Assembly (NCBI RefSeq): GCF_001921215.1
Contig: NZ_MSIF01000003.1
Location: 1 to 64,000, forward strand
Origin: Actinophytocola xinjiangensis
GTDB lineage: Bacteria; Actinomycetota; Actinomycetes; Mycobacteriales; Pseudonocardiaceae
DNA length: 64,000 nt
Direction: 5' to 3'
How positions within the stretch are numbered: the stretch's first letter is position 1; each line of letters opens with the position of its first letter. This document shows positions 32,827 to 48,093 of the stretch, one piece after another. The notes beneath the pieces are model-generated. The model worked only from the letters and a program-made list of their open reading frames with translations. It did not search any database and was not told the DNA's origin. Made by a program: the position numbers and the translations under genes.

Positions 32827-33477
32827 ATGTCCAGGACCAGACCCCTTGCCGCGGCGGCGATCGCCGTCGCGCTGGTCGTCCCGCCGCTCGTCCTCGCGCC
32901 GGTCAGCGTGGCCGAACCCAGACCGGCACCGGTGGCGCCGAGCGCCAAGCCGGCCACCGTCACGCCGGCCGGTGAACACGTCCTGCAAGTCGACTACCAG
33001 GTCCAGGAGACCGGCTACTGGTGCGGCCCGGCCGCCACCCGGATCGCGCTGTCCGCGCGCGGGGTCTACCGCAGCCAGGCGTCGCTGGCCGCCGAACTCG
33101 GCACGCACACCGGTGGCACCGACTGGATCGGCCAGGTCACCCGCGTCCTGGGTGGCTACGTCGGCTGGTACGAGACCAAGGAGATGCCCAACGACCCGCC
33201 GACGCAGGCGCAGAAGGACCTGCTGTGGCGCGACATCGTGCTGGACATCGACAACGGGTACCCGATCGTGGCCAACATCGTCGCGCCGCCGGGGAACCAG
33301 CCGCCCGGCTACCCGCCCGGCCAGACGATCTACCACTACTTCACCGTGATCGGCTACAACGACGTCAACCGCACCGTGCTGATCGCCGACCCGGCGTCGT
33401 TCAGCGGCAACCAGATCTACTGGTTGACCTTCGACCAGCTGGCTTCCCTGATCCCGCCCAAGGGCTACAGCGCCTGA
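32827..33477 (+). CDS. Secreted C39-like cysteine peptidase
   Basis: A 216-residue secreted protein. The signal peptide (MSRTRPLAAAAIAVALVVPP..) precedes a Pro/Ala-rich stretch. The papain-like peptidase_C39_2 domain has VDYQVQETGYWCGPAATRIALSA with Cys66, YHYFTVIGYND with His170 and ADPAS with Asp188. This group of secreted C39 proteins is common in actinobacteria; unlike the ABC-fused bacteriocin peptidases, their targets are unknown. ATG 32827 is preceded by GGAGGAGG. The end overlaps the convergent LLM oxidoreductase by 13 bases. Confidence 0.87.
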   Translation: MSRTRPLAAAAIAVALVVPPLVLAPVSVAEPRPAPVAPSAKPATVTPAGEHVLQVDYQVQETGYWCGPAATRIALSARGVYRSQASLAAELGTHTGGTDWIGQVTRVLGGYVGWYETKEMPNDPPTQAQKDLLWRDIVLDIDNGYPIVANIVAPPGNQPPGYPPGQTIYHYFTVIGYNDVNRTVLIADPASFSGNQIYWLTFDQLASLIPPKGYSA

Positions 33478-34487
33478 CCCGCCCGCAGGGACGCGAGGGT
33501 GTGCGTCCACCGGGCGGGGTCGATCGGGTCGGTGCTGGTGAGACCGACCCGATCGGCGATGTCGCCGTAGCGGGTGGTCAGCTGGTCGGCCACCTCGTCG
33601 GGCGTGCCGACCACGGCGAAGGTGTGCAGCACCTCGTCGTCGATCAGCGCGGTCATCTCGTCCCACCGGCCCAGCACCGACAGCTCGTAGAGGGTCTCGT
33701 GCAGGTCCGCCCAGCCGTGCAGGCGGAAGACCGGGCGGTAGGTCGCGGTCGACCCGAAGAACGCGACCCGCTGGCGGGCCGAGGTGATCGCGGCGTCGAG
33801 CTCGGCCGGGCTCGAGCCGACGGCCGACACCAGCGCGCAGCTGATCCCGAAGCCGGCCATCGTCGCGCCCGCCCTGGCGCGGCCGCGTTCCAGCGCCGGC
33901 ATGGTGACCTCGCGCAGGTAGCGCTCGGTGGTGGCCGGGCTGGTCACCAGGCCCTCGGCGACCTCACCGGCGACCTCGGTCATCGTCGGGCCGACGGCGG
34001 CGAGGTAGATCTTCGGGTTGCCGTACGGGTTCGGGCCGGGGGCGAACATCGGCGTCATCAGGTTGTGCGTGTAGTGCTCGCCGGCGAAGTCGAGCCGCTC
34101 GCCGGTCTCCCAGGACCGCCAGATCGCCCGCACGGCCAGCACGAACTCCCGCAGCCGCGAGGCCGGGTCGGCCCACGGCATGCCGAACCGGCGGGTGATG
34201 TGCGCCTCGACCTGGGTGCCCAGGCCGAGCACGAACCGCCCGCCGCACAACTCGTGCAGGTCGTTGGCCTGCATGGCGACGGTCATCGGGTTGCGGGCGA
34301 AGGCGATGGCCACCGAGGTCATCAGCTCGACCCGGGAGGTCCGGCCGGCCGCGGCGGTCAGCAGCAGGAACGGGTCGAACCGGGTCTCGGCCACCAGCGC
34401 GCCGTCGAACCCCGCGCGTTCGGTCTCGACGATGGCCTCCACGGCCCGGTCGATGGTCTCGGCGTGCTCACCGAAGTCGATCCTCAT
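33465..34487 (-). CDS. LLM-class flavin/F420-dependent oxidoreductase
   Basis: A 340-residue luciferase-like TIM-barrel protein. The start RIDFGEHAETIDRAVEAIVETERAGFDGALVAET, the segment VELMTSVAIAFARNPMTVAMQANDLHELCGGRFVLGLGTQVEAHITRRFGMPW, and PKIYLAAVGPTMTEVAGEVAEG are typical of F420-dependent LLM proteins (TIGR03617-like). It could oxygenate, reduce or dehydrogenate the product of the upstream NRPS. The ATG overlaps the NRPS stop (ATGA), so it is the third gene of the PKS-NRPS operon. Cofactor choice (F420 versus FMN) is inferred from family resemblance only. Confidence 0.87.
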   Translation of the reverse strand: MRIDFGEHAETIDRAVEAIVETERAGFDGALVAETRFDPFLLLTAAAGRTSRVELMTSVAIAFARNPMTVAMQANDLHELCGGRFVLGLGTQVEAHITRRFGMPWADPASRLREFVLAVRAIWRSWETGERLDFAGEHYTHNLMTPMFAPGPNPYGNPKIYLAAVGPTMTEVAGEVAEGLVTSPATTERYLREVTMPALERGRARAGATMAGFGISCALVSAVGSSPAELDAAITSARQRVAFFGSTATYRPVFRLHGWADLHETLYELSVLGRWDEMTALIDDEVLHTFAVVGTPDEVADQLTTRYGDIADRVGLTSTDPIDPARWTHTLASLRAGQAL

Positions 34488-47900: not shown

Positions 47901-48093
47901 TGCCGGGAGTTTGCGGAGTGGCGTCGTGGAACAGGTTGATGTCAAATCTTTCCGGCGGAACCTCACGAATTCGCTCACCGCCGTCGAGGAGCAGGTTCCA
48001 TAATTCTCCGGCGTCGCGCGCCCCTGGGAAACGGCAGCCGATCCCGATCACCGCGATCGGCTCGTTGCTCACGGATTCCCTGGCAGCGCCCAT
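41944..48093 (-). CDS. Type I PKS module KS-AT-DH-ER-KR-ACP
   Basis: A 2049-residue PKS. KS 10-430: Cys178 in DTACSSS, His313 in EAHGTGTPVGD, His351 in TNIGHAEAA. AT 525-840: GHSMGE with Ser616, specificity motif VASH (716-719), ambiguous but nearer methylmalonyl (YASH) than malonyl (HAFH). DH 875-1130: His904, with HxxxG changed to HRVQE, and Asp1061 in HPALLDACFQ. Then a structural KR half. ER about 1425-1645: HPASGPVGLAAVQ present but the substrate loop is missing. KR 1650-1820: GGLGGLGG, Tyr1785 and Asn1789 intact. A Pro/Ala-rich linker leads to the ACP with GFDSL (Ser2003). No loading domain or thioesterase is present. ATG 48093 has GAAGGAG upstream. It overlaps the NRPS by 4 bases. A single module may act once or iteratively. 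Confidence 0.93.
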   Translation of the reverse strand: MGAARESVSNEPIAVIGIGCRFPGARDAGELWNLLLDGGERIREVPPERFDINLFHDATPQTPGKIVTRCGGFLDGIDQFDAAYFRVSPREAAQLDPQHRLLLETTADALRDAGLTREALGRTGAFVGQISRTYWELLSTRGILDVYSSLGTMGSGASGRLTHAFDLRGPSVSVDTACSSSLVAVHTACRSLRAGECDVAIAGGVSLILGPADSIAYSQANMLAPDGRCKFGSASANGFVRSDGIAAVVLKPLSRAAADGDRVHALILGTSALNDGTGASMMTPSQAGQAAALRAAYADAGIDPAEVGYVEAHGTGTPVGDPVELAAIAEVIGAGRDRPLAVGSVKTNIGHAEAAAGMAGLIKAILCVRHRHIPVSLHAEDLNPAFDWDALPVEVARTARPWPTDGRAVAGVSSTGLSGTNVHVVVAEAPPPRPRATAPDQARLLTLSARDRRALRDLAESTASLLDSGAAPDICHTAGARRDHHEHRLTAVGATADELAERLRAYLAGSPARGLAAATAPGSPPRVVFVFPGQGSQWVGMARELIRTAPAFAATLAECDAAVRAEAGWSPIERLASDAELSSVDVVQPVLWAVEVALAAQWSAWGVRPDAVVGHSMGEVAAACVAGALSLADGAAVICRRSALLTRVSGRGAMASVELTVEQAEAEIGAYADRVSVAVSNSAGSTVLSGDPGALDEIIAGLAGREVFARRVKVDVASHSPRMDELRADLLAALESVRPRAGTVPLMSTVDQREVSGDALTAGYWVRNLREPVMFGAVTRELAGRAPTVFVEMSPHPVLVPALEETVEDAGQGTVVGSLRRDEPELETLLHAVGQAHLAGVRLDWALINPGRHTDLPAYPWQRSRHWFADTPTAHPLLTGLTRSRTGGWTGRLDLTANAYLRDHRVQETAVLPGSAYAELLHAALGGDRGTVELRDVVLHNAIYLDPAPTVLVEITGDQATVSSRPDDTRPWVTNATGTVVRHTPAAPATAAAYLRGVVRDHWSGPDFYGRFAGGGNEWRGAFQGIVRLWRGTDEATAHLAAPPAIVESLPSHTFHPALLDACFQVLVGVIEPADTADSLLLGGFDSLRVYREVPATGLRCRAVRVPGGRPGSVAGDLTVTDREGVVVAEISGLWSRDLTDTPTARPGEPLGQAGDSGGFAGANRADDLGRPEEAGQWVESNGLGGSGQGSDWTVESSRVAGELGRDGSVDELLHEVRWRSAPQLSPDTRLTRWVVFLDDGGIGWDLAARLGGDVVTVAGGDGFRDLGGGHYEIDPASAADYRAVLGVRDDRRCGVVHLWGLDTAGPVDASAVRTVPPLVAAFEEPVDLWLVTRGAQCLDGDPLVVPAQTMLWGLGRSLAAERADVRTVLVDLAAGTRTAAQLAREVGARDDGENQIALRATGRHVARLVRGVTAARHTGQGDPGPGQVAVDVAHVASGVCGGTVVALGAGVAGVTVGDTVVAVAQGPVADARLVFAAPGRLGLAEAVVSLGAHLVAYLGLRELRAGGRVLIHPASGPVGLAAVQYARHLDAEVYATDDDPDRRALLGMAGLRQVGGESTVTGDVLAQTRGRGVDVVLVTRPGEPVPAVLAPGGTGVTAPELAAFAHARPDETATALRRVLALLDAGLLGAIPGQTRGGDPAARFAIRPDGTYLVTGGLGGLGGYACRWLLDNGAGHVLAVGRSAATAPDPRITYARADVTDEDALRSLLAESGLPPVRGVIHAAGVLDFAAFDEYTPGHLDAMLAPKVAGGWAVHRATLGQPLDFFVLYSSGTSVFGSAHTSAYAAANAYLDGLAHHRRLAGLPATSVNWGYWSGAGMVVRLEAARGESVVPTGMSAFGPEEAMPALHTLLTRGAVQATVVAADWPRCAAEPDLARNPLLRDLLTAPTPVRRAAPPTWTAPSPAASESLPTAVATTRPVPPPAPPRRSAGSPRTIPKPAPPARPVAAPPASPRPVRAEEATPATAPARDLSVVLADAVASVMGMSTHDLDVTAPLNTMGFDSLMAGQVRSRVREATGLLVPITRMLSGRSVTELASGLHEQAGNGGAR

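What the first reader, a model, noticed from the sequence alone, without database searches (positions are those of the whole stretch)
33465..48093. Compact three-gene PKS-NRPS-LLM cluster with a predicted acyl-Ser-X product
Three genes joined by 4-base overlaps encode one PKS module, one two-module NRPS with TE, and an LLM oxidoreductase. The pocket residues of A1 spell the serine code. No transporter, MbtH protein, PPTase, regulator or loading enzyme is adjacent. So small and self-contained a hybrid cluster is unusual in an actinomycete, and I do not recognise it as a known pathway.
Basis: partly seen in the sequence, partly recalled or inferred. Interest (0 to 1): 0.72.

Follow-up and report, generated by a model that had tools for sequence, protein, structure and literature searches.

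The report
Altered bacterial alkaloid-making gene cluster
Three bacterial genes form a small assembly line that belongs to a known family making ring-shaped alkaloids from serine and proline, but the usual oxygen-inserting enzyme is missing and a different, probably hydrogen-adding enzyme sits in its place, so the product is probably a new relative of those alkaloids.

Summary
In detail: PKS, two-module NRPS and LLM genes lie on the minus strand at 48093-33465 with 4-bp overlaps, and A1 reads as the serine code. The NRPS is a colinear relative (C-A-T-C-A-T-TE) of the bacterial pyrrolizidine/cyclocarbamate NRPSs, including PxaA of Xenorhabdus stockiae DSM 17904. In 77 colinear relatives A1 is serine-like and A2 reads D[VMI]QxxxQxxK (PxaA: proline); the window's A2 is DVQMAAQLVK. 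C2 matches McyA and AmbE best, pointing to a dehydrating domain. So an acyl-dehydroalanyl-proline chain, cyclised by the TE to an indolizidine, is predicted. Unusual: 77 of 77 colinear relatives (73 distinct) carry the LgnC/PxaB-type Baeyer-Villiger monooxygenase; the window does not, and no orthologue was detected in its genome. Instead it has a TIGR03617 F420-dependent LLM oxidoreductase, found beside none of the 77. Best guess: F420H2 reduces the dehydroalanine-derived C=C or the ring ketone, giving a non-rearranged indolizidine. New variant of a known kind; function untested.

The parts
41944..48093 (-). PKS gene (2049 aa): KS 46804-48093, AT 45544-46593 (xASH motif, methylmalonyl-like), DH 44644-45513 (His and Asp present, HxxxG changed to HxxxE), shortened ER 43234-43773, KR 42604-43173 (catalytic S, Y, N present), ACP about 41986-42171
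   Evidence: nearest solved structure MAS, 835 bits
34484..41947 (-). NRPS gene (2487 aa): C1 40658-41947, A1(Ser) 39158-40657, T1 38888-39157, C2 37568-38887, A2(Pro-type) 36023-37567, T2 35762-36022, TE 34973-35761, tail 34487-34972
37568..38887 (-). C2, predicted dehydrating condensation domain (CmodAA type), HHALFDG
   Evidence: best solved structures McyA 221.5 bits and AmbE 164.8 bits, next 126.5; PMC10880069 section 18 passages
36023..37567 (-). A2, proline-type code DVQMAAQLVK
   Evidence: 77 of 77 relatives D[VMI]QxxxQxxK; PxaA locus L115 DVQIISQVIK
34487..34972 (-). shortened enoyl-CoA-hydratase-like tail fused after the TE; lacks about 30 active-site residues and the C-terminal part
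   Evidence: no match in 77 of 77 colinear loci
33465..34487 (-). F420-dependent LLM-class oxidoreductase (TIGR03617 family)
   Evidence: 442.1 bits against cut-off 278.15; best PDB hits Mer

Best explanation
A hybrid PKS-NRPS assembly line of the bacterial pyrrolizidine/cyclocarbamate lineage whose Baeyer-Villiger step has been replaced. Steps: (1) the PKS, probably started by an acyl-CoA or acyl-ACP, makes a short, probably alpha-methylated acyl chain and passes it from its ACP to C1 (inferred). (2) A1 loads serine (code shown; activity inferred). (3) C2 dehydrates the acyl-Ser to acyl-Dha and joins it to proline loaded by A2 (inferred from homology). (4) The TE uses the Dha enamide as nucleophile and releases a 2-acylamino-indolizidinone (inferred from PxaA). 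(5) No BVMO follows (shown for this assembly); the F420H2-dependent LLM enzyme instead works after the assembly line and reduces the dehydroalanine-derived C=C or the ring ketone, giving a reduced, non-rearranged indolizidine (inferred, weakest step). The ECH tail is probably a non-catalytic relic. Confidence by part: NRPS lineage and Ser/Dha/Pro core about 0.85; absence of the BVMO step about 0.85; reduction by the LLM about 0.4.
For: Colinearity over about residues 3-2325 at 43-51% identity in 16 of 16 Pseudonocardiaceae loci first fetched; 77 of 104 examined loci colinear. A1 Ser-like in 77 of 77 and A2 pattern in 77 of 77, including the characterised X. stockiae DSM 17904. TE Ser/Asp/His, C2 His/Asp and T1/T2 Ser kept in the window and in 77 of 77. 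C2 best matches McyA and AmbE. pxaA alone makes the indolizidine intermediate in E. coli (PMC11794875, passages). BVMO in 77 of 77 colinear loci (73 distinct), not in the window; LLM and ECH tail in the window only. YWW, part of the published BVMO motif, is in 73 of 73 family FMOs; the four best own-genome FMOs lack it and fall outside the family clade, support 0.876. The window nests inside the BVMO-linked tree (support 0.998 with L082, L093, L111), so the loss looks derived. LLM is TIGR03617 and the genome has F420 synthesis (CofH/FbiC, 528.8 bits). Precedents: PepI, a TIM-barrel F420H2-dependent enzyme of an NRPS-PKS pathway, reduces ketones after the assembly line (PMC12081711, abstract and passages); LxmJ, of the LLM class, reduces dehydroalanine (PMC8498797 table passage; PMC10880069 section 13 passage).
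Against: I found no known substrate for a TIGR03617 enzyme. LLM homologues at 56-64% identity in the 19 loci examined (the best of matches in 155 of 390 genomes) have no such NRPS or PKS within 1.5 kb, and one sits near SHMT and a LysR regulator, so it could be a metabolic enzyme recruited for an unrelated step. The window's A2 has Ala where 72 of 77 have Ser, so a proline analogue is possible. The shortened ER, the DH Gly-to-Glu change and the ECH remnant could mean decay. The window branch is long and the tree was midpoint-rooted, so its exact neighbours are not certain. 18 loci that failed my order test show no BVMO; one of them (L134, an acidobacterial MAG, 46% over residues 923-2282) ends 0.2 kb after its NRPS, so its downstream genes cannot be seen.
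Confidence: 0.6

Rival explanations
1. The LLM enzyme acts before release: it reduces the carrier-bound acyl-Dha(-Pro) to acyl-D-Ala(-Pro), so no enamide is left and the TE releases a linear or diketopiperazine-like acyl-D-Ala-Pro product.
For: LxmJ, an F420-dependent LLM-class enzyme, makes D-Ala from Dha; the NRPS is predicted to make Dha.
Against: LxmJ acts on a ribosomal peptide, and PepI acts after the assembly line. The listings show no F420 enzyme acting on a carrier-bound Dha, but I read few of those papers. The TE keeps the triad of the cyclising TEs.
Confidence: 0.15
2. The LLM protein uses FMN and oxygen and replaces the BVMO functionally (luciferase-fold BVMO), so the product is still a pyrrolizidine or cyclocarbamate.
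For: Position: it overlaps the NRPS by 4 bp, as the BVMO does in L061, L062, L064 and L067 (11 bp in L071, L074, L075). Luciferase-fold BVMOs are known (recalled).
Against: TIGR03617, 442 bits, is an F420-dependent family by name and curation; of nine PDB matches the best eight are Mer or F420-dependent glucose-6-phosphate dehydrogenases.
Confidence: 0.15
3. The cluster is decaying: loss of the BVMO, a truncated ER and an ECH fragment mark a pathway that no longer makes anything.
For: ER lacks about 20 residues including LNFRDV; the ECH tail lacks active-site residues.
Against: 14.6 kb of three open frames without a stop inside; catalytic residues of C1, C2, T1, T2 and TE intact; third-position GC typical of coding sequence, also in the tail; 4-bp overlaps kept. 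Another PKS (L188) has a similarly shortened ER.
Confidence: 0.1
4. One reading: a small linear lipopeptide, acyl-Ser-X, unrelated to known pathways.
For: A1 serine code.
Against: Whole-length homology to a family that makes cyclised products.
Confidence: 0.05

Closest known systems
Pyrrolizixenamide pathway PxaA/PxaB (Xenorhabdus stockiae DSM 17904, locus L115)
   Same: Colinear C-A-T-C-A-T-TE NRPS; A1 DVWHFSLVDK in both; A2 DVQIISQVIK against DVQMAAQLVK; C2 His/Asp, T and TE catalytic residues kept.
   Different: No PxaB-type BVMO in the window; an added PKS, F420-LLM and ECH tail; 36% identity overall.
Brabantamide (BraB/BraC), legonmycin (LgnA-D), bohemamine/legoncarbamate (Lga), azetidomonamide/clipibicyclene pathways
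   Same: Ser/Thr plus Pro (or azetidine) through transient Dha/Dhb to an indolizidine-type intermediate, by the papers: PMC7820566 (parts 1 and 3 of 5, and passages), PMC11177316 (part 1 of 5), PMC10880069 (passages), PMC11457151 (abstract and introduction), PMC11794875 (passages).
   Different: In those papers the intermediate goes on to an LgnC-like BVMO. Compared through the papers, not by sequence.
Fused PKS-NRPS plus BVMO loci of Pseudonocardiaceae (L157-L162)
   Same: PKS module KS-AT-DH-ER-KR feeding the same kind of NRPS, one chain of 4516 aa in L157.
   Different: PKS of another lineage by its KS, ACP and ER motifs; one chain; BVMO present; an SDR gene lies between NRPS and BVMO in L157.
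PepI, F420H2-dependent ketone reductase of the pepstatin NRPS-PKS pathway (PMC12081711, passages)
   Same: TIM-barrel F420-dependent enzyme in an NRPS-PKS cluster that reduces the released product.
   Different: Other assembly line and substrate; sequences not compared here.
LxmJ-type F420-dependent dehydroalanine reductases (lexapeptide)
   Same: LLM fold class, F420 cofactor, dehydroalanine substrate as is possible here.
   Different: Works on a ribosomal peptide; sequence relation not tested.

Membership tests
Bacterial pyrrolizidine/cyclocarbamate NRPS (PxaA type) | Bimodular C-A-T-C-A-T-TE in one chain, colinear | tested here: met
Bacterial pyrrolizidine/cyclocarbamate NRPS (PxaA type) | A1 for Ser (or Thr) | tested here: met
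   code DVWHFSLVDK; Ser-like in 77 of 77 relatives; activity not tested
Bacterial pyrrolizidine/cyclocarbamate NRPS (PxaA type) | A2 for Pro or analogue | tested here: met
   fits D[VMI]QxxxQxxK of 77 of 77, but Ala at the sixth code position as in 1 of 77; activity not tested
Bacterial pyrrolizidine/cyclocarbamate NRPS (PxaA type) | Dehydrating (CmodAA) C2 after a GGDSI/L donor T | tested here: met
   by homology; dehydration itself not tested
Bacterial pyrrolizidine/cyclocarbamate NRPS (PxaA type) | Type I TE with Ser-Asp-His | tested here: met
Bacterial pyrrolizidine/cyclocarbamate pathway (whole cluster) | LgnC/PxaB/BraC-type FAD BVMO | tested here: not met
   absent from the window; the four best own-genome FMOs are outside the clade and lack YWW
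Bacterial pyrrolizidine/cyclocarbamate pathway (whole cluster) | Pyrrolizidine or cyclic carbamate product | not testable with these tools
   needs metabolomics
TIGR03617 F420-dependent LLM oxidoreductase | Score over the curated cut-off | tested here: met
   442.1 against 278.15 bits
TIGR03617 F420-dependent LLM oxidoreductase | Binds F420 | not testable with these tools
   F420 synthesis gene is in the genome
LxmJ-type dehydroalanine reductase or PepI-type ketone reductase | Sequence membership and reaction | not tested
   no LxmJ or PepI sequence compared; fold class only
Enoyl-CoA hydratase (tail) | Complete active site and trimerisation part | tested here: not met
   second catalytic region and C-terminal part missing against 9 of 9 crotonases compared; residue roles recalled

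The most novel reading that the evidence does not exclude
A pyrrolizidine-type NRPS has exchanged its Baeyer-Villiger oxygenase for an F420H2-dependent reductase of the dehydroamino-acid unit or ring ketone: a first reductive branch of this alkaloid family, giving a PKS-tailed, reduced 2-acylamino-indolizidine (or an acyl-D-Ala-Pro) scaffold.
Probability: 0.3. Interest if true: 0.75.

Novelty: new variant of a known kind. Interest (0 to 1): 0.5.

Why it matters
All 77 colinear relatives examined carry the Baeyer-Villiger oxygenase that is known to rearrange the indolizidine in this family. A member that lost it and gained an F420-dependent enzyme would show how this assembly line reaches a new scaffold, and would give a function to one member of a large LLM family whose substrates I found no report of. 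It can be tested with three genes.

Tried and rejected
Fusion of the ECH tail inherited from an ECH-LLM neighbourhood: not supported; no ECH match near the LLM homologue in 25 of 25 loci examined (19 loci with 1.5 kb flanks and 6 of 15-17 kb, four of which look again at places among the 19).

The window's PKS as an orthologue of the fused relatives' PKS: not supported. The five best family KS genomes (56-57%, L173-L177) were looked at in larger loci (L184-L188); no NRPS condensation or adenylation domain of this type lies there, one partial TE match in L187.

A closer orthologue outside the family: 394 genomes of the class gave 3 at E<=1e-70 including the window's own; both others (G595, 65% in A2, and G496) have the BVMO.

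Structure predictions of the LLM and of TE+tail from single sequences were too poor to use (pLDDT 38 and 41). Rfam scan of 30-52 kb at gathering scores: nothing. Viral-contig scan: nothing. Promoter/terminator scan of 48.0-51.3 kb: at chance level. My regular expression for the published YWWxTKN motif caught only 39 of 77 loci; the strict motif varies in its second half, while YWW is in 73 of 73 on the alignment.

Rows dropped: 27 of 104 loci failed my C-A-C-A-TE order test. In one search, 9 of these 27 have a BVMO match (L095, L103, L113, L118, L120, L123, L141, L142, L143) and 18 have none (L119, L122, L124, L126, L132-L134, L140, L145-L149, L151-L154, L156); many of the 18 are other NRPSs, but L126 and L134 are relatives cut by the contig end. 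L163 was fetched but left out of the 104 (other domain order, no BVMO). 4 of the 77 are the same contig as another row (L088, L130, L135, L138) and were removed before the trees, leaving 73.
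Full report
The three genes are real. PKS 41944-48093, NRPS 34484-41947 and LLM 33465-34487 lie on the minus strand, overlap by 4 bp at both junctions (GTGA, ATGA) and have coding-type third-position GC. Pfam gives KS-AT-DH-ER remnant-KR-ACP, C-A-T-C-A-T-TE plus a partial ECH, and Bac_luciferase. The neighbouring ORFs scanned are not biosynthetic. The genome (9.5 Mb, 72 contigs, 99% complete) holds 114 matches to the condensation family, so the cluster is one of many. I infer the family Pseudonocardiaceae: a contig of 381,240 bases of a same-family genome has the length of one of Umezawaea endophytica.

What the NRPS is. A search of 390 genomes of the family with part of A2 gave 22 genomes at E<=1e-70, the window's own included. 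All 23 other places were fetched. In the first 16 loci a single NRPS aligns over about residues 3-2325 of the window protein at 43-51% identity and ends soon after the TE. By my order test 77 of 104 loci carry C-A-C-A-TE in one frame.

Pocket codes. A1 reads DVWHFSLVDK in the window and in 71 of 77, with one change in each of the other 6. A2 reads DVQMAAQLVK in the window; all 77 relatives have D at the first, Q at the third and seventh and K at the tenth position; PxaA (L115) reads DVQIISQVIK. PxaA uses serine and proline (PMC11794875 and PMC11177316). Positions were placed by motif from recalled knowledge of the 10-residue code.

Dehydration and release. C2 matches McyA (221.5 bits) and AmbE (164.8 bits) best among solved structures, the next being 126.5. 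A review says that the CmodAA clade holds domains of the microcystin and bleomycin clusters, that characterised dehydrating C domains belong to it, with the AmbE pathway as an example, and that bacterial pyrrolizidine pathways pass through a transient Dha that the TE cyclises as an enamide (PMC10880069, passages of sections 17-18). That the two solved chains are the CmodAA domains of their proteins is recalled. C2 His and Asp, T1 and T2 Ser and the TE triad are present in the window and in 77 of 77.

The missing BVMO. An LgnC/PxaB-type FMO is found by tblastn in 77 of 77 colinear loci (73 distinct; lowest score 266 bits) and not in the window; the LLM and the ECH tail match the window and none of the 77. 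The FMO was not used to choose the 77. In the whole genome the best FMO matches are 38% or less (7 at E<=1e-10); the four best fall outside the clade of the 73 family FMOs (support 0.876) and lack YWW, which 73 of 73 have. The window sits inside the midpoint-rooted tree of BVMO-linked NRPSs (with L082, L093, L111, support 0.998; these three keep the BVMO), so loss of the BVMO is the simplest reading. Published work calls the bimodular NRPS and the BVMO the two essential enzymes (PMC11457151, introduction). Among the 27 loci that failed the order test, 9 have a BVMO match and 18 do not, two of them relatives cut by a contig end.

The LLM. It scores 442.1 bits to TIGR03617, an F420-dependent subfamily, and its best solved relatives are Mer enzymes. 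The genome encodes CofH/FbiC. Homologues at 56-64% identity in the 19 loci examined, out of matches in 155 of 390 genomes, have no such NRPS or PKS within 1.5 kb. Two precedents fit. PepI, a TIM-barrel F420H2-dependent enzyme of the pepstatin NRPS-PKS pathway, reduces ketones after the assembly line (PMC12081711, abstract and passages). LxmJ reduces dehydroalanine in lexapeptide (PMC8498797 and PMC10880069, passages). The predicted indolizidinone offers both a ring ketone and a dehydroalanine-derived C=C. Which of them is reduced, if either, is inference. Searches of the open-access library listed no paper that joins F420 or LLM enzymes with this pathway family (PMC10880069 treats both, in separate places); subscription papers are not covered.

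The PKS. It is closest among solved structures to mycocerosic acid synthase (835 bits), an enzyme I recall as iterative and methylmalonyl-specific. AT has an xASH motif; KS and KR catalytic residues are present; DH keeps His and Asp but has Glu for the Gly of HxxxG; the ER lacks about 20 residues including the LNFRDV stretch. Six relatives carry a PKS fused in front of the same kind of NRPS, by its motifs of another lineage. So PKS feeding occurs in the family, and here it seems to have arisen separately. Starter and chain length cannot be told.

The ECH tail. It aligns at 40-48% with 9 ordinary crotonases, keeps the oxyanion-hole region and the first Glu, and lacks about 30 active-site residues and the C-terminal part (residue roles recalled). 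It reads in frame to the LLM start with coding-type composition. I take it for a relic or a structural add-on.

Verdict. Known NRPS lineage, new combination. The core prediction is strong, the reductive step is a hypothesis, and no chemistry was tested.

Noticed in passing
L100:12102-14642: In this Streptomyces relative the BVMO frame continues into a PapA/condensation-like acyltransferase domain in one 846-aa frame; several other loci have BVMO frames of about 850 aa, but in L093 and L111 no second Pfam domain was found there.
   Followed up: partly
L157-L162: Pseudonocardiaceae loci with PKS and the Ser-Pro-type NRPS fused in one chain (4516 aa in L157), with a BVMO downstream and, in L157, an SDR gene in between.
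   Followed up: partly
48900-50700: GC drops to 0.58-0.61 upstream of the PKS gene, against 0.70-0.76 in most of the window; the eight ORFs tested in and around that stretch have no Pfam match.
   Followed up: no
51277-60761: Very large ORFs with subtilase, carboxypeptidase-regulatory-like and kelch repeats (1655 and 2250 aa) on the minus strand.
   Followed up: no
21969-22970: AsnC-type regulator with two helix-turn-helix regions in one protein.
   Followed up: no
genome of the window: 114 matches to the condensation-domain family in 9.5 Mb: a very NRPS-rich genome.
   Followed up: no
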